Assembly: GCA_949155905.1 (NCBI GenBank)
Contig: CASCWU010000001.1
Coordinates: 1 to 64,000, forward strand
DNA length: 64,000 bases
Reading direction: 5' to 3'
From: an uncultured Lachnospiraceae bacterium
GTDB lineage: Bacteria; Bacillota; Clostridia; Lachnospirales; Lachnospiraceae
Both the position numbers and the translations under genes were made by a program. Positions 57,709 through 64,000 of the stretch are shown here, in pieces. Within the stretch, counting starts at the first letter, position 1. The number at the start of each line of letters is the position of its first letter. The notes beneath the pieces are model-generated. The model did no database searches, had not been told where the DNA came from, and saw only the letters and a list, made by a program, of their open reading frames with translations.

Positions 57709-57830
57709 GTTATAATAAGTAAAAACTATGTTAGGATATAAATGAATGGAGTTAAATAGTAAATTGAGAATTAGCTTGAGAAATCAGAGCGAGAAGTAAG
57801 GTAAAAATTCAGGTTAAGAAGGTGAGTCGG

Positions 57831-59111
57831 ATGGTTGAAAAATTATTTTTTGGGGAAGGGAAAAATATTGAATTTAAAAGAGAGATTCCTCCTAAACATG
57901 AGAAATTTTTAAAGGATATTATTGCGTTTTCCAATAGCACTGGTGGGAAGGTAATTTTGGGGATTGAGGATAAGACAAATCTAGTTTACGGGATTGGAGA
58001 GACTAATCCATTTAAGTTGTCGGATGATATTTCTAATATGATTTCCGATGCCTGTACCCCACAGATTATTTCTTATATTACCATTCAGACATTAGAAGAA
58101 AAAACAGTACTGATAATTGACATACCACCGGGAAATTTTCGGCCTTATTATTTGAAATCGCTTGGGAAAGAAGCGTCTGCTTATATTCGGATTAATGGCA
58201 CCAGCCGACCGGCAGATGCAAGGATGCTTCAGGAACTGGAACTGGAGGGGCAGCATATCTATTATGATTCGATGCAGGAAATTGGGATGGAATATCAGGA
58301 AAAACAGGCCTTAGAGCTGTGTGCCATAATGAAGCAGCTTGCATTGGAATCCTGTAAAACAGAGGACGAACGGGCGGAGGTAAAGGATTTGACGATAGAG
58401 AAGCTGGAGGATATGGGATTGCTTTGCAAGGTAGGAAGAGACTATGCGCCGACACACGCCTTTCATTTGATGACAGAGAATAAAGTAAGGTTTGCCAAAA
58501 TTCAGTGTGCCTTGTTTAAAGGAACGGATCGGGATATTTTTATTGACCGTAAGGAGTTTAAAGGGCCGATTTATGAGCAGATCCAGGAGGCATATCAGTT
58601 TGTGCTTCGCCATATCAACAGAGGAGCAGAGTTTGAGGGAGTAGTTCGCCGGGATATTTATGAACTGCCCGTTCTGGCAATCCGGGAGGCGATTGTCAAT
58701 GCAGTTACGCACCGCAGTTATTTAGACGATTCTTGTATCCAGGTTTCTGTTTTTGATGACAGGATGGAAGTGTTATCCCCAGGGAGATTATATGGTGGCC
58801 TGGATATAGAGACAGCATTGTCTGGGAAATCCAAATGTAGAAATGCAGCTATTTCGGAGGCTTTCTATTATATAGGAATCATAGAAGCATGGGGGACAGG
58901 GCTTGGAAGGATTCGGAAAAGCTGTCGGGAATATGGATTGAAGGAGCCTGTAATCGAGGAATTTGGAGATGGGTTCCGAGTTATCTTTTTTAGAAAAATA
59001 GAAAAGGAAACAGGGAAAAAGAAGGAAGTTGCTCCTATAAAAGCCACAAAACCGCCGGAAAATCCTACGAGATGGATGGGAAGGCTTTTAAAGGGATTTG
59101 CAAGGTCTTAA
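57831..59111 (+). CDS. AlbA_2 / Schlafen-type DNA-binding protein with GHKL-like ATPase C-terminus
   Basis: ATG 57831 follows AAGAAGG. The 426-residue protein has an AlbA_2 (Slfn AAA_4) domain at residues 5-130: GEGKNIEFKREIP, FLKDIIAFSNSTGGKVILGIED, SAYIRINGTSRPAD. A C-terminal HATPase_c_4 region shows REAIVNAVTHRSYLDD, DRMEVLSPGRLYGGL and IEAWGTGLGRI. Such proteins are often annotated as RecG-like helicases or transcriptional regulators, and some act in phage defence. Base composition is more AT-rich than in the BMC region. It sits before the restriction-modification genes. Confidence 0.85.
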   Translation: MVEKLFFGEGKNIEFKREIPPKHEKFLKDIIAFSNSTGGKVILGIEDKTNLVYGIGETNPFKLSDDISNMISDACTPQIISYITIQTLEEKTVLIIDIPPGNFRPYYLKSLGKEASAYIRINGTSRPADARMLQELELEGQHIYYDSMQEIGMEYQEKQALELCAIMKQLALESCKTEDERAEVKDLTIEKLEDMGLLCKVGRDYAPTHAFHLMTENKVRFAKIQCALFKGTDRDIFIDRKEFKGPIYEQIQEAYQFVLRHINRGAEFEGVVRRDIYELPVLAIREAIVNAVTHRSYLDDSCIQVSVFDDRMEVLSPGRLYGGLDIETALSGKSKCRNAAISEAFYYIGIIEAWGTGLGRIRKSCREYGLKEPVIEEFGDGFRVIFFRKIEKETGKKKEVAPIKATKPPENPTRWMGRLLKGFARS

Positions 59112-59143: not shown

Positions 59144-59752
59144 ATGGAACAATACAAATCCTACCGAATGTATTTCTGTCAGGAATACACCGGGCAGCTC
59201 AATAAATTCGGCGGCTTGCCGACTCACCTGCCTTCGGTCTGGCCGAAGGATGAAAACGGGGAAGATGATTTGACATTTTTATGTCAGCTTTATTGTGACG
59301 AAGTGAAGCTTTCACTTGAAAATATATTGTGTATCCAGCTTTATCAATGGGTAGAATGGGACGGGCAGGAAGGGGCGGACGTCATTGTGGTTCCGGTTCC
59401 GATAGGAGCAAAGGAAAATCTGCAGGGCGAGGGAGTGAGCCATCCGTTGCTGAAGGAAGGGGATATTCGTTTTGAAGAGGTACTGGAGGAGGTCGTAGAA
59501 GAGCATGCCAGGGAGACGTTAGAGGATGAAAACGGACTGTATTTATGGGAAAATAAGCTGGGCGGGTGGTTCCATGAGGAGGCTGTAACGCCAGGCAAGG
59601 AGGATGTCACCCCAGAAAATTTTTTAGGAATGATAGGCGATGGGGACGGGTCTGTACCTTATAACAAATATTCTCCTTTTAACTGGGGGTGCGGGTATCA
59701 GTTGGTTTTTTACAGGAACCATTCTGGAAAGGTGGAGTGGGATTTTTACTAA
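59144..59752 (+). CDS. DUF1963 (YwqG)-like protein
   Basis: The 202-residue protein has the DUF1963-like start NKFGGLPTHLPSVWP, followed by DLTFLCQLYCDEVKL and late NWGCGYQLVFYRNHSG. The family is common in Firmicutes and has no established function; it occurs in immunity-like and defence neighbourhoods. AAGAGG lies before the start. It ends about 90 bases before the methylase promoter. Confidence 0.65.
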   Translation: MEQYKSYRMYFCQEYTGQLNKFGGLPTHLPSVWPKDENGEDDLTFLCQLYCDEVKLSLENILCIQLYQWVEWDGQEGADVIVVPVPIGAKENLQGEGVSHPLLKEGDIRFEEVLEEVVEEHARETLEDENGLYLWENKLGGWFHEEAVTPGKEDVTPENFLGMIGDGDGSVPYNKYSPFNWGCGYQLVFYRNHSGKVEWDFY

Positions 59753-59839
59753 AAGAGAAAGGATACTTGACAACCAGGCATATTTAGTATCCAAGAATGT
59801 TTAGCATCCGATTTAAAAATAAATTTACAGAAATAAGGC

Positions 59840-59867
59840 TTGAATATCTCTATATCCATGATATAAT
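59840..59867 (+). promoter_or_regulatory. Promoter of the restriction-modification genes with palindromic operator
   Basis: TTGAAT (59840-59845) and TATAAT (59862-59867) are 16 bases apart. TATATC-CAT-GATATA (59851-59865), a perfect palindrome, covers the spacer and the start of the -10 box. The methylase has an N-terminal HTH and could bind here to repress its own transcription. Confidence 0.6.
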
Positions 59868-59922
59868 AAAGGAAAAGTGTCTAATATCGGATAAAATATG
59901 TTGCATGGACAGGGAGGATATC

Positions 59923-62061
59923 ATGAATTACACGGCAACCCAGATGGCAAAAAAATTAAATATTTCCAGATCCTATTTATATTATTTGAAGGAAAGCAGG
60001 ATTGTAGAGGTAGTAGTGAACGAAAATGGAAAGGCTGTATGGACAGAGGCCGTGTATGAAACATTAAAGGAATATATCAAAAAGAACCGTCCGAAAGAGG
60101 AAGCAGAGGAGAAGCCGCCCTATAAGACAATTACGATAAATAACCGGAGATACCTGGGGAATAAGTATAAGCTGCTTCCCTTTATTACAAAAGTAGTAGA
60201 AGCAGAATGTGAAAATGTGAATACGGTAGCTGATATTTTTGCAGGAACGGGGGCGGTAGCCTCTGCTTTTACCAATAAAAAGCTGATTGTAAACGATAAT
60301 CTGTATAGCAATTATATCTGTCATGTGGCATGGTTTAGCAGCGAGCCATATTGCAGGGAGAAAATAGTAGAACTGGTGCAAATGTATAATAACGAAGCTG
60401 TAACTGCGGACAACTATATGAGTGAAAATTTTGCAGACACCTATTTTTCCTTGGAGGATTGCAGGAAAATCGGATATATCCGGGAGGATATCGAACAGCG
60501 ATATGTCAGAGGAGAACTGAACGAAAGGGAAAGGGCGTTGCTGATTACTTCTCTTTTATATGCGATGGATAAAATTGCGAATACCTGCGGTCATTATGAT
60601 GCGTATCGGCAAGGGATCCAGTTTGAAAAGCATTTGGAATTGGCGGTGCCGCAGCCGGAAGAGCAGTTAAATGAGAATAATATCTGCTACCATTTGGATA
60701 CAAAGGAGCTTACACCGCATATTGAAGCGGATTTGGTTTACATCGATCCACCCTATAATTCCCGTCAGTATTGCGACGCCTATCATTTGCTGGAAAATGT
60801 TGCGGAATGGAAAAAGCCAGAGGTGTTTGGGGTAGCGAAAAAAATGGATCGGAGCAAGCTGAAAAGCGAGTATTGTACCAAAAAGGCAGCAGAAGCCTTT
60901 GAAGGACTGATAGACTCCATTCAGGCGCGCTATATTTTATTGTCTTATAACAATATGGCTCAAAAGGGAGACGAACGCTCCAATGCCAAAATAAGCGATG
61001 AAGATATTTGGCGGATTTTAGGGAAAAAAGGCACAGTAAAGGTATTTGTAGAAAATTATAAGGCTTTTTCAGCGGGAAAGTCTGATATCCAGGAAAATCA
61101 GGAAAGGTTGTTTTTGTGCGTTTGCCAGGAATCGGAAAAGAAGCAGATTCCTTCTGCCCTGAATTATACGGGAGGAAAATATAAGCTGCTTCCTCAGATC
61201 CTGCCGTTTTTTCCAGAGGATGCGGACTGTGTAGTAGATTTGTTTTGCGGCGGCTGCAATGTAGGAATCAATGTAGCTTGCAGCAGGGTTCAGTTTAATG
61301 ATTCTAACGGATATTTGATTGGTCTGCTGAATACCCTGAAGCGTTTGCCAAAGGAGGAAATCTTTCAGTGGCTTTATGCGGCGATCCGGAAATACAATCT
61401 GTCGTTAGTGTGTGAGCATGGTTATGAATATTATGGATGTGAAAGCTCAAAAGGATTAGCCAGCTATAACAAAGAGGGATATGGCAGGCTAAGAAAAGAC
61501 TTTAATAACTGTACGGAAAAAAATGATGATTATTATTTGATGCTTTATTTGCTTTTGGTCTATTCCTTTAATAATCAGATCCGCTTTAACCGAAAGGGAG
61601 AGTTTAATCTGCCGGTTGGAAAAAGAGATTTTAATGGGAACATGCAAAAAAAGCTGGCTGATTTTCTGGATAGAATCAAAAGCGGAGATTATCGCTTCAC
61701 GAAACAGGATTTCAGGGAAATAGCGAGAGAGGATTTTACAGACAGAAGCTTTTTTTATGTAGATCCCCCGTATTTGATTACCTGTGCAACCTATAATGAG
61801 CAGGCAGGTTGGACCGAACAGGACGAGCGGGATTTGTTGGAATATCTGGAACGGCTGGATGAAGAGGGAATTCGATTTGCCTTGTCTAATGTTCTCGAGA
61901 GTAAGGGGAAGAAAAATGATATTTTAGCGGATTGGATAAACAGGAACGAACGGTTTCATATGATCGAGCTGGACTATGATTATTCAAACTCTAATTATCA
62001 TACCAAACGGGATGGGGCTGCAAAAGAAGTGTTGGTAGTAAATTACGAGATAGGAAGATAG
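59923..62061 (+). CDS. Two-domain D12-class DNA adenine methyltransferase with N-terminal HTH
   Basis: ATG 59923 follows AGGGAGG; frame upstream to 59797 is not supported by a site. The 712-residue protein has a MerR-like HTH (residues 1-50; TATQMAKKLNISRSYLYYLK) and a first N6-adenine methylase domain with SAM motif ADIFAGTG (about 105) and catalytic DPPYNS (about 274). A second, Dam-like domain has LNYTGGKYKLLP (about 415), VDLFCGGCNVG (about 440) and DPPYLI (about 614). Two domains in one chain methylate the two strands of an asymmetric site, as in M.FokI and relatives. It protects against the nuclease encoded 37 bases downstream. Confidence 0.9.
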   Translation: MNYTATQMAKKLNISRSYLYYLKESRIVEVVVNENGKAVWTEAVYETLKEYIKKNRPKEEAEEKPPYKTITINNRRYLGNKYKLLPFITKVVEAECENVNTVADIFAGTGAVASAFTNKKLIVNDNLYSNYICHVAWFSSEPYCREKIVELVQMYNNEAVTADNYMSENFADTYFSLEDCRKIGYIREDIEQRYVRGELNERERALLITSLLYAMDKIANTCGHYDAYRQGIQFEKHLELAVPQPEEQLNENNICYHLDTKELTPHIEADLVYIDPPYNSRQYCDAYHLLENVAEWKKPEVFGVAKKMDRSKLKSEYCTKKAAEAFEGLIDSIQARYILLSYNNMAQKGDERSNAKISDEDIWRILGKKGTVKVFVENYKAFSAGKSDIQENQERLFLCVCQESEKKQIPSALNYTGGKYKLLPQILPFFPEDADCVVDLFCGGCNVGINVACSRVQFNDSNGYLIGLLNTLKRLPKEEIFQWLYAAIRKYNLSLVCEHGYEYYGCESSKGLASYNKEGYGRLRKDFNNCTEKNDDYYLMLYLLLVYSFNNQIRFNRKGEFNLPVGKRDFNGNMQKKLADFLDRIKSGDYRFTKQDFREIAREDFTDRSFFYVDPPYLITCATYNEQAGWTEQDERDLLEYLERLDEEGIRFALSNVLESKGKKNDILADWINRNERFHMIELDYDYSNSNYHTKRDGAAKEVLVVNYEIGR

Positions 62062-62098
62062 AAGGATAAGATAAGGCGAAAAGAGGGAGAGATAAGGC

Positions 62099-64000
62099 AT
62101 GGCAGATGGGATAGGGTTCCGAAGCTACTGCTGGTCAATCGGGACGACTAGCTACCGGACTGATAAGTTTAATATGAATATAGAGCTGCAGTTGGCATTA
62201 TTGAAGGAATTCAGGTCGTTGCCGGAAAATCAGGGCAGAACATGGTCAGGAAATAATGAGTTCCAAAAGGAGTATTACGGATTTTTAAAAAGCAGAGGTT
62301 TTGTAAAGGGAGATGCTCCAAGGTCGGATAAGGATGCAAGAGAAAAAACATCGGGATTACGGGACATCGGCTTATTGGATGATGAGCGTATTCTTACGGA
62401 GGCCGGGGAAGCCTTGCTGAAAATTGCGGAAACCGGAGATTTTAAATCAGATAATGAATTGGAAATTCCAAAGGACAGTTATCTGTACTTGAAACAGTTG
62501 TTAAAAACCTCCAATGAAGTGAACGGAAAAGTAGTCAGGCCGTTTGTCATATTTTTATATCTGATAAATCAGGCGGGTTATCTGACATATGAAGAATTTA
62601 CGTATTTACTTCCCCTATGTATAGACAAAGAAACTACCAATACTGTTTTAAAACATATCCTGTTTTCCCGGAAAGAAGGCTTGCAGGTAGAGGCTGCGAT
62701 TTTATCAGTCCTTATGAAAATGGAAAATTATAAACAGGCTTCTATGCTTCTGCAAAAAGAAGAGGTTACAGAAGAGTTGATTTGCAATATCGGAATGAAC
62801 CGGAAAAGTGGAAGGTATGACAAGCCTTATTATAAGTTGTATCAACTCTTGCATGAGATAGTATTCCGAAAGGAAAATCTTGTCCTGGAGTTGTATGATG
62901 CAACGAAAAAACTGACAAACAGTAAGGTAGGAGGAGCCTGGAGAAATTATTTCTTCGCAAGCAGCGCCAGAAGCGTGATCCGTAGAGAAGGCTTGTCTGT
63001 TTTAAAGCCGGTTCCCATTTTGAGTGTGGAGAAAGAAGAACAATTTAAGGAAGAATTTTTTAAAATCATGCACTTGTTCAAAGCGAAGGCAACACTTTCT
63101 GATTATTTTGACTTAAATAGACGATATTTTAAACTAACCGATTTAGTATTGTATGAGGATCAGAAAATCAGATTGGACGTGCTGCCAGGTTGTTATGTAG
63201 AAGATATTTCGGAGGAATTATTATCGTTTGCATTTGAGAAAACAGAATTATTGCAGAAAGATGTTGCATTAGAGGAAATTCATCCATGTCTGGAGATTTC
63301 TATAGAGCGTTTGTACCATAAATTAGGGAAGGTTTTTGGAAAAACTGTGGTGGACAAGGCTTCTGCCCATAAAATTATGGAAGAGGAACGGTATCTCCGT
63401 TTTCACAAGCTGATCGAGGAGAGATTTCCGAACGATACCATAATAGCCTTACTTGGTCATTTTGAGAAAAGAAACGATGAAGAAATCCGAACTCTTGTAA
63501 CAGACAATGCAGATATTCCTACTATTTTTGAATATATTCTTGGAATTGCATGGTATATCATCAGCGAAAAGCAAGGCGATGTCCTGGAATATATGAATTT
63601 GTCTTTAGAAGCGGATTTGTTGCCGAGGACGCATGCAGGAGGAGGGGAAGCAGATATTGTCTGGAATTATGAGAAAACAAGCGAATATCCGAAGCATACC
63701 TTGTTGATAGAGGCCACGTTAGCAGATGGTTCCAACCAACGGAGGATGGAAATGGAGCCTGTGTCCAGGCATTTAGGAGAATATTGTCTGAAAAATCCGG
63801 ATAAAGAGGCATATTGTATTTTTATTACTACCTTTCTGAATATGAATGTCATCTCAGATTTCAGAGCGAGAAAATCTATGATATATTACAGTGCGGATGG
63901 AACCAAGAGCATAAATGGAATGAAAATTATACCCATACAAACGTCGGAATTAAAGACCTTGCTCAGATTTGATGTGAGGTATCCGCAAATCTATAAAATG
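62099..64000 (+). CDS. AlwI-like type IIS restriction endonuclease, cut by the window end
   Basis: ATG 62099 follows GGGAGA; 634 codons are in the window and the stop lies beyond. The start FRSYCWSIGTTSYRTDKFN and IELQLALLKEF match the AlwI family. A PD-(D/E)XK core is visible as GGGEADIVWNYE (aspartate 519) and HTLLIEATL (glutamate 538), followed by RRMEMEPVSRHL. In the E-A-T position the usual lysine is replaced by threonine, as in several type IIS enzymes. AlwI itself recognises GGATC and cuts outside the site; the site of this enzyme cannot be deduced. Pairing with a two-domain methylase fits a type IIS system. Confidence 0.85.
   Translation, partial: MADGIGFRSYCWSIGTTSYRTDKFNMNIELQLALLKEFRSLPENQGRTWSGNNEFQKEYYGFLKSRGFVKGDAPRSDKDAREKTSGLRDIGLLDDERILTEAGEALLKIAETGDFKSDNELEIPKDSYLYLKQLLKTSNEVNGKVVRPFVIFLYLINQAGYLTYEEFTYLLPLCIDKETTNTVLKHILFSRKEGLQVEAAILSVLMKMENYKQASMLLQKEEVTEELICNIGMNRKSGRYDKPYYKLYQLLHEIVFRKENLVLELYDATKKLTNSKVGGAWRNYFFASSARSVIRREGLSVLKPVPILSVEKEEQFKEEFFKIMHLFKAKATLSDYFDLNRRYFKLTDLVLYEDQKIRLDVLPGCYVEDISEELLSFAFEKTELLQKDVALEEIHPCLEISIERLYHKLGKVFGKTVVDKASAHKIMEEERYLRFHKLIEERFPNDTIIALLGHFEKRNDEEIRTLVTDNADIPTIFEYILGIAWYIISEKQGDVLEYMNLSLEADLLPRTHAGGGEADIVWNYEKTSEYPKHTLLIEATLADGSNQRRMEMEPVSRHLGEYCLKNPDKEAYCIFITTFLNMNVISDFRARKSMIYYSADGTKSINGMKIIPIQTSELKTLLRFDVRYPQIYKM

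What the first reader, a model, noticed from the sequence alone, without database searches (positions are those of the whole stretch)
59840..64000. AlwI-like type IIS system with HTH-fused double methylase and palindrome over its promoter
The methylase has an N-terminal MerR-like HTH, two catalytic domains with DPPY motifs, and the endonuclease follows in one operon. TATATC-CAT-GATATA overlaps the -10 region. A methylase that represses its own promoter would time protection before cutting without a separate C protein; this is known for some cytosine methylases with HTH extensions.
Basis: partly seen in the sequence, partly recalled or inferred. Interest (0 to 1): 0.6.

Follow-up and report, generated by a model that had tools for sequence, protein, structure and literature searches.

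The report
Self-regulating SfaNI-like restriction-modification operon
This is a bacterial DNA-cutting defence operon whose protective enzyme carries its own gene-regulator domain; the palindrome first noticed over its promoter is probably incidental, but other short DNA elements around the promoter are strikingly conserved and look like its real control sites.

Summary
Observation confirmed, operator assignment not supported. The locus is an operon of a double N6-adenine methyltransferase (59923-62061) and an RE_AlwI-family endonuclease (62099-64102 on the contig). Residues 1-58 form a MerR-type winged HTH. The site is most likely GCATC/GATGC (SfaNI-like), inferred from a same-family staphylococcal system with a published methylome, not measured here.

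The palindrome TATATC-CAT-GATATA is there, but a 200-bp stretch of this composition gives such a palindrome by chance 36% of the time, and it is whole in register in 2 of 26 related loci (window and L003, identical DNA there).

Conserved instead are: (A) a leader element [GT][AT]TGC[AC]T just upstream of the start codon, in 11 of 14 MerR-HTH clades versus 2 of 33 relatives lacking that HTH (motif chosen post hoc; 3 of 3 later clades fit), in several relatives as 9-bp direct repeats like BldC operators; (B) a TTAGCATCC box about 57 bp upstream of the -10, its GCATC core invariant in 21 of 21 distinct clade sequences. B is clade-level only: outside the leader, GCATC is not associated with the HTH (4/14 versus 5/33).

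Best reading: the methylase autoregulates through A, with its own methylation site B as second input. No binding or expression data exist.

The parts
59923..62061 (+). HTH-fused double N6-adenine methyltransferase gene (712 aa)
   Evidence: full-length match to PADLOC MTase_II model PDLC03292 (837 bits), which includes the N-terminus
59923..60096 (+). MerR-type winged HTH, residues 1-58, no coiled-coil dimerisation helix predicted
   Evidence: AlphaFold pLDDT 87; HiNmlR Z 9.8; RacA, CadR, CueR, BldC also listed
60148..61119 (+). methyltransferase domain 1 (residues 76-399; DPPY 60745-60756)
61123..62049 (+). methyltransferase domain 2, Dam-like (residues 401-709; DPPY 61762-61773)
   Evidence: T4Dam, EcoDam, DpnM
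62099..64000 (+). RE_AlwI-family type IIS endonuclease, 667 aa; continues to contig position 64102
59840..59867 (+). sigma-70-type promoter TTGAAT-16-TATAAT (extended -10)
   Evidence: a -35/-10 with 16-bp spacer found in 22 of 22 main-clade loci
   Evidence: whole only in window and L003 of 26 loci
59800..59809 (+). element B: TTTAGCATCC box; GCATC at 59804-59808 is the inferred methylation site
   Evidence: GCATC invariant in 21 of 21 distinct main-clade sequences
59900..59906 (+). element A: GTTGCAT leader element, best HTH operator candidate
   Evidence: 22 of 22 main-clade loci; 11 of 14 HTH clades versus 2 of 33 relatives without MerR-HTH
59878..59885 (+). TGTCTAAT, conserved leader block (TGTCYA) about 21 bp before element A
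   Evidence: TGTCYA 20-22 bp before A (or its TGTGGCA/GGTGCAT variant) in 26 loci (22 main clade, L020, L021, L049, L065); absent there in L055, L023, L029

Best explanation
The locus is an SfaNI-like type IIS restriction-modification operon. The first gene makes a methyltransferase with two N6-adenine domains, one per strand of an asymmetric site that is most likely GCATC/GATGC; the second makes an AlwI-family endonuclease for the same site. The methyltransferase starts with a MerR-type winged HTH that lacks a dimerisation helix. It most likely works like BldC, binding direct-repeat-type leader DNA, here element A ([GT][AT]TGC[AC]T, 59900-59906) between promoter and start codon, and so represses its own operon when enough methylase is present. 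A copy of its own methylation site (B, 59804-59808) about 57 bp upstream of the -10 is held invariant in this clade and probably acts as a second input (methylation state, or docking of a catalytic domain). Shown: gene content, predicted fold, conservation. Inferred: specificity, binding, repression, role of methylation.
For: Domains and fold. Specificity: S. xylosus TMW 2.1324, an AlwI-family REase with a 2127-nt methyltransferase, methylates GCATC and GATGC, reproduced in E. coli (PMC10030836 sections 12 and 14); a Caldicellulosiruptor AlwI-family system also recognises GCATC/GATGC and M.SfaNI is one gene with two domains (passages of PMC9799307). A S. aureus plasmid relative with the same HTH architecture is 56% (domain 1) and 43% (domain 2) identical to the window enzyme. 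Element A: 22/22 main-clade loci; 11/14 HTH clades versus 2/33 others, Fisher 1.4e-6, post hoc motif; the three HTH clades fetched after TTGCAT was noted (L116, L124, L125) all carry it. Two copies exactly 9 bp apart in L036, L038, L124, L125 (8 bp in L106) (partly by eye); BldC binds 9-bp direct repeats (PMC5859096 passages). Element B: GCATC invariant, immediate flanks partly variable; rank 1 of 512 five-mers, 19/19 representatives. Modularity: relatives replace the MerR-HTH by a fused XRE-like domain (L040, L060, L123) or a separate XRE-like gene (L057, L058, L068), i.e. the slot of a C protein.
Against: No binding, expression or methylome data for this enzyme. Element A is missing in L049, L065 (TGTGGCAAG instead) and L055, all HTH-fused, and L066 has tandem A-like sites with no HTH. 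In the window A is a single copy without the TAA end and without a 9-bp partner. Outside the leader, GCATC is not associated with the HTH: 4/14 versus 5/33, Fisher 0.25. My pre-stated out-of-sample test of GCATC in 200 bp was inconclusive: 2 of 3 new HTH clades, 3 of 9 new controls. The endonuclease is only 25-28% identical to the staphylococcal and lactobacillalean ones, so specificity transfer rests mainly on the methyltransferase.
Confidence: 0.5

Rival explanations
1. One reading: the methylase HTH binds the TATATC-CAT-GATATA palindrome over the -10 and represses there.
For: The palindrome is perfect and overlaps the -10; classical MerR proteins and M.SsoII-type methylases bind palindromes.
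Against: Whole in 2 of 26 loci, and these two share identical DNA; chance 0.36 per 200 bp. No coiled-coil dimerisation helix in the model.
Confidence: 0.07
2. Regulation is by methylation of, or catalytic-domain binding to, the upstream GCATC site alone, as in CfrBI, LlaDII or LlaJI; the HTH only helps DNA scanning or does something else.
For: GCATC core invariant in the main clade and at a fixed distance (56-59 bp in 21 of 22 loci, 48 in L018) from the -10; also present in HTH-less L023 and L029; paired inverted sites in L020, L021, L049, L065.
Against: The site lies upstream of the -35, outside the core promoter; it does not explain why element A goes with the HTH.
Confidence: 0.2
3. The leader elements act in the mRNA (translation control or a riboregulator) rather than as DNA operators.
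For: Element A keeps its distance to the start codon within the main clade and overlaps the ribosome-binding region in Lactobacillales.
Against: The companion block TGTCYA overlaps the -10/start region in L020, L021, L049, L065 and so is at most partly in the mRNA there.
Confidence: 0.12
4. Element B is an upstream terminator or the boundary of a mobile cassette, not a regulatory site.
For: 8 of 22 main-clade loci have an inverted GGATGC arm 30-35 bp upstream, often with a T-run after the box; conservation ends just upstream of the box.
Against: 13 of 22 have no second arm but keep GCATC (L007 has a second GCATC in direct orientation); no shared box follows R.
Confidence: 0.15

Closest known systems
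SfaNI and SfaNI-like type IIS systems (E. faecalis SfaNI, S. xylosus TMW 2.1324, Caldicellulosiruptor Cal02329)
   Same: m6A methylation of both strands, AlwI-family endonuclease in S. xylosus and Caldicellulosiruptor; single-gene methylase in SfaNI and S. xylosus
   Different: Window endonuclease is only 25-28% identical to staphylococcal/enterococcal relatives; site not measured; separate M1 and M2 in Caldicellulosiruptor
HTH-fused autoregulatory C5 methylases (M.SsoII, M.Ecl18kI, M.EcoRII, M.MspI, M.ScrFIA)
   Same: HTH-bearing methylase, self-repression (shown there, proposed here)
   Different: Here a MerR-type wHTH on a double m6A enzyme in a co-directional M-R operon; M.SsoII's operator differs from its methylation site
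LlaJI, CfrBI, LlaDII (regulation via own sites in the promoter)
   Same: Own recognition site conserved in the control region
   Different: Here the site lies upstream of the -35 (comparison partly recalled, partly from review passages)
BldC-like MerR wHTH proteins
   Same: MerR wHTH without coiled coil; 9-bp direct repeats in several relatives
   Different: Here fused to a methyltransferase; single-copy element in the window
MhoVII (Mycoplasma hominis, GATG/CATC)
   Same: Fused double methylase with its endonuclease in one operon
   Different: M1 is of the YhdJ class; authors report no own sites in its promoter and no extra regulator gene (abstract and passages of PMC12898733)

Membership tests
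RE_AlwI endonuclease family | Pfam PF09491 above curated cut-off | tested here: met
   258.9 bits versus 23.1
SfaNI-like R-M system | recognition and m6A methylation of GCATC/GATGC | not testable with these tools
   inferred from relatives and from the invariant GCATC box
SfaNI-like R-M system | two m6A methyltransferase domains | tested here: met
   two DPPY domains; strand assignment not testable
AlwI (GGATC) system proper | recognition of GGATC | not testable with these tools
   no assay; nothing here points to GGATC
M.SsoII/M.EcoRII-type regulatory methylases | HTH at the N-terminus of the methylase | tested here: met
M.SsoII/M.EcoRII-type regulatory methylases | C5-cytosine methyltransferase domain | tested here: not met
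   D12-class N6-adenine domains
M.SsoII/M.EcoRII-type regulatory methylases | operator bound by the HTH overlapping the promoter | tested here: inconclusive
   palindrome not conserved; leader element A is a candidate
Classical MerR regulators | MerR winged-HTH fold | tested here: met
   VIA-align Z 9.8, 58 aligned, rmsd 1.5 to HiNmlR
Classical MerR regulators | coiled-coil dimerisation helix after the wHTH | tested here: not met
   no long helix between residue 55 and the MTase domain in the model (linker modelled at low confidence)
BldC-like regulators | head-to-tail binding of 9-bp direct repeats | tested here: inconclusive
   9-bp tandem sites in 4 of 14 HTH clades (L036, L038, L124, L125), not in the window; binding not testable
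LlaJI/CfrBI/LlaDII-type promoter-methylation control | own recognition site conserved in the control region | tested here: inconclusive
   GCATC invariant in 21 of 21 distinct main-clade sequences, but that GCATC is the own site is inferred, and it is not a family-wide rule

The most novel reading that the evidence does not exclude
The HTH operator and the enzyme's own methylation site have merged: in B (GGATGCTAA on the bottom strand) and in A of Lactobacillales and relatives (GATGC[AC]TAA), the HTH core overlaps GATGC, so m6A placed by the catalytic domains would switch binding by the HTH of the same polypeptide, giving a one-protein epigenetic autoregulator that senses its own methylation progress.
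Probability: 0.18. Interest if true: 0.75.

Novelty: new variant of a known kind. Interest (0 to 1): 0.48.

Why it matters
Self-regulating HTH methylases described in the papers read are C5 enzymes. A MerR/BldC-type domain on a double m6A methylase of a common type IIS family, with defined leader and own-site elements, makes autoregulation and methylation sensing directly testable with one reporter plasmid. The family also swaps regulator modules (fused MerR, fused XRE-like, separate XRE-like gene, none), a natural experiment on how restriction-modification systems control dose.

Tried and rejected
Palindrome as operator: rejected on conservation. FokI-type site (GGATG/CATCC): less likely, because the base after GCATC varies in the box (19 of 21 C) and is T in L049/L065 while GCATC does not vary. 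Helical phasing of box B to the -10 (56-59 bp; 47-48 bp in L018, L049, L065; but 70 in L029): too few independent cases, left as a lead; the L065 figure was read by eye. Association of upstream GCATC with the HTH: first looked strong (8/11 versus 4/24; Fisher 0.002) but faded once leader sites were set aside and new loci added (4/14 versus 5/33). L003 was dropped as independent evidence: 100% identical to the window for about 900 bp, then about 70%. L010, L014 and L016 were reduced to one representative. The 14-locus site count includes loci chosen because they had sites (L023, L029, L066) and is not used. An unbiased 6-mer test put AATATG and AAGGAG above TTGCAT (p 0.0016), none corrected for 595 tests. 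Viral-contig scan with the window protein alone found nothing. Internal promoter for R: 10 promoter-like hits against 6.3 expected, no clear candidate. Literature: the listings of searches showed no report of a MerR-fused double m6A methylase or its regulation; the LlaDII paper is not held and the SfaNI paper of Furmanek-Blaszk was seen only as a citation. In the control set the start position used for L060 is off (not a start codon), so its row is approximate.
Full report
What is there. The window ends in a two-gene operon. The first gene (59923-62061) encodes a 712-residue double adenine methyltransferase; the second (62099 to 64102 on the contig) a 667-residue endonuclease with RE_AlwI far above its cut-off. 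AlphaFold models show a small winged HTH at residues 1-58, then domain 1, then a domain 2 whose structure matches T4Dam, EcoDam and DpnM. The HTH modelled alone (pLDDT 87) matches MerR-family structures first (HiNmlR, RacA, MtaN, SoxR), with BldC further down.

Specificity. Relatives of the methylase are spread over Lachnospiraceae and other Bacillota, with more distant ones in other phyla: 32 loci, 15 of 397 family genomes (own genome included), 140 plasmid records. In S. xylosus TMW 2.1324 an AlwI-family REase with a 2127-nt methyltransferase gives m6A at GCATC and GATGC, confirmed by expression in E. coli (PMC10030836, sections 12 and 14 read). I did not have that sequence; the S. aureus plasmid locus L036, of similar gene sizes and with an HTH N-terminus, stands in for it. 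Window versus L036: domain 1 56%, domain 2 43% identity; the endonucleases are only 27% identical. I therefore infer GCATC, with room for error.

The palindrome. It exists and overlaps the -10, but shuffled 200-bp upstream DNA has such an inverted repeat 36% of the time. Among 26 loci aligned on the -10 only the window and L003 have all six pairs, L018 has five, the rest 0-4. L003 shares identical DNA with the window there, and is probably a recombinant or a chimeric assembly, because identity falls from 100% to about 70% inside the methylase gene.

What is conserved instead. Aligning upstream regions shows five islands: a TTAGCATCC box, the -35, the -10, a TGTCYA block and a TTGCAT block. In the 22-locus main clade (21 distinct rows) GCATC is invariant, with one T two bases before it; positions 4-10 bases upstream have majority frequencies of 0.38-0.57. 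GCATC is the top five-mer of 512 in -200..-92, in 19 of 19 representatives. The box starts 56-59 bp before the -10 (48 in L018). Eight of 22 loci carry a second, inverted GATGC 30-35 bp further upstream (L007 instead has a direct one); L020/L021 have the pair with 12 bp between, L049/L065 with 5 bp between.

Leader element A. GTTGCAT (GATGCAT in L013) lies about 24 bp before the start codon in 22 of 22 main-clade loci. With a post hoc motif [GT][AT]TGC[AC]T within 70 bp of the start, 11 of 14 MerR-HTH clades have it against 2 of 33 relatives without that HTH (Fisher 1.4e-6). Misses: L049, L065, L055. Exceptions in the control set: L060 (about 69 bp upstream of an approximate start) and L066 (tandem A-like sites, no HTH). 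TTGCAT had been noted before L116, L124 and L125 were fetched (note), and all three carry the element. In L036, L038, L124 and L125 it occurs twice at 9 bp, in L106 at 8 bp, allowing a degenerate copy. BldC, a MerR-like protein without dimerisation helix, binds 9-bp direct repeats head to tail (PMC5859096, passages). This makes A the best operator candidate, more so than any palindrome.

Limits of the own-site idea. I wrote down beforehand that new HTH clades should carry GCATC within 200 bp more often than chance. Result: 2 of 3 new HTH clades, 3 of 9 new controls, which is inconclusive. Overall 10 of 14 versus 7 of 33 (Fisher 0.0017), but much of this comes from GATGC inside element A; outside the leader it is 4 of 14 versus 5 of 33 (0.25). 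Box B is thus firmly conserved within the main clade and recurs in a few neighbours, but is not a family-wide rule.

Regulator swaps. Relatives without the MerR domain often have another regulator in the same place: XRE-like domains fused in L040, L060 and L123, and separate XRE-like genes upstream in L057, L058 and L068 (identified by eye from sequence, not by profile). That the slot is filled by regulators of the C-protein kind supports a regulatory role for the MerR domain. L010, L014 and L016 lack an AlwI endonuclease in the sequence held yet keep box and leader, so the control region serves the methylase itself.

Mechanism. Most likely the methylase limits its own operon by HTH binding in the leader, downstream of the predicted transcription start (about 59874, by inference), with box B as a further input. 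Because M and R share the promoter, this would set dose, not the M-before-R order; any delay must come from gene order or translation. All regulatory steps are inferred.

Known versus new. HTH-bearing C5 methylases that repress themselves, and methylases that act through own sites in promoters, are established (passages in PMC3978073, PMC3874152, PMC12707154). The AlwI/SfaNI-like system is known. The listings of searches showed no description of a MerR-type domain on a double m6A methylase or of elements A and B. I file it as a new variant of a known kind.

Noticed in passing
L003:1-900 versus window 59700-60600: Identity is 100% up to inside methylase domain 1, then about 70% through the endonuclease, with a different downstream flank: recombination between alleles or a chimeric MAG contig.
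   Followed up: partly
L010, L014, L016 downstream of M: Main-clade methylases with no AlwI endonuclease found; in the three loci an oxidoreductase-like ORF lies downstream on the other strand. Control region retained (L010 is a 3-kb contig).
   Followed up: partly
L025:3050-6013, L026:466-3444, L027:2996-5959: Double methyltransferase fused in frame behind a roughly 320-residue ATPase-like N-terminal part with a P-loop-like motif, with no AlwI endonuclease found nearby.
   Followed up: no
L037:3986-4000: GATGCCTAAATGATG at the Enterococcus methylase start encodes a three-codon mini-ORF (MPK) whose stop overlaps the start codon: possible translational coupling.
   Followed up: no
L029:3825-3874: Leader of an HTH-less relative holds a long inverted repeat (CTAGCAACTTAA...TTAAGTTGCGCTAG) just before the ribosome-binding site.
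   Followed up: no
window 57822-59111: Schlafen AlbA_2 plus HATPase_c_4 protein upstream of the operon, with an unassigned ORF (weak, below-cut-off DUF1963 match) at 59144-59752.
   Followed up: no
L105 (Priestia plasmid): Two AlwI-family endonuclease genes flank one double methylase, on opposite strands.
   Followed up: no
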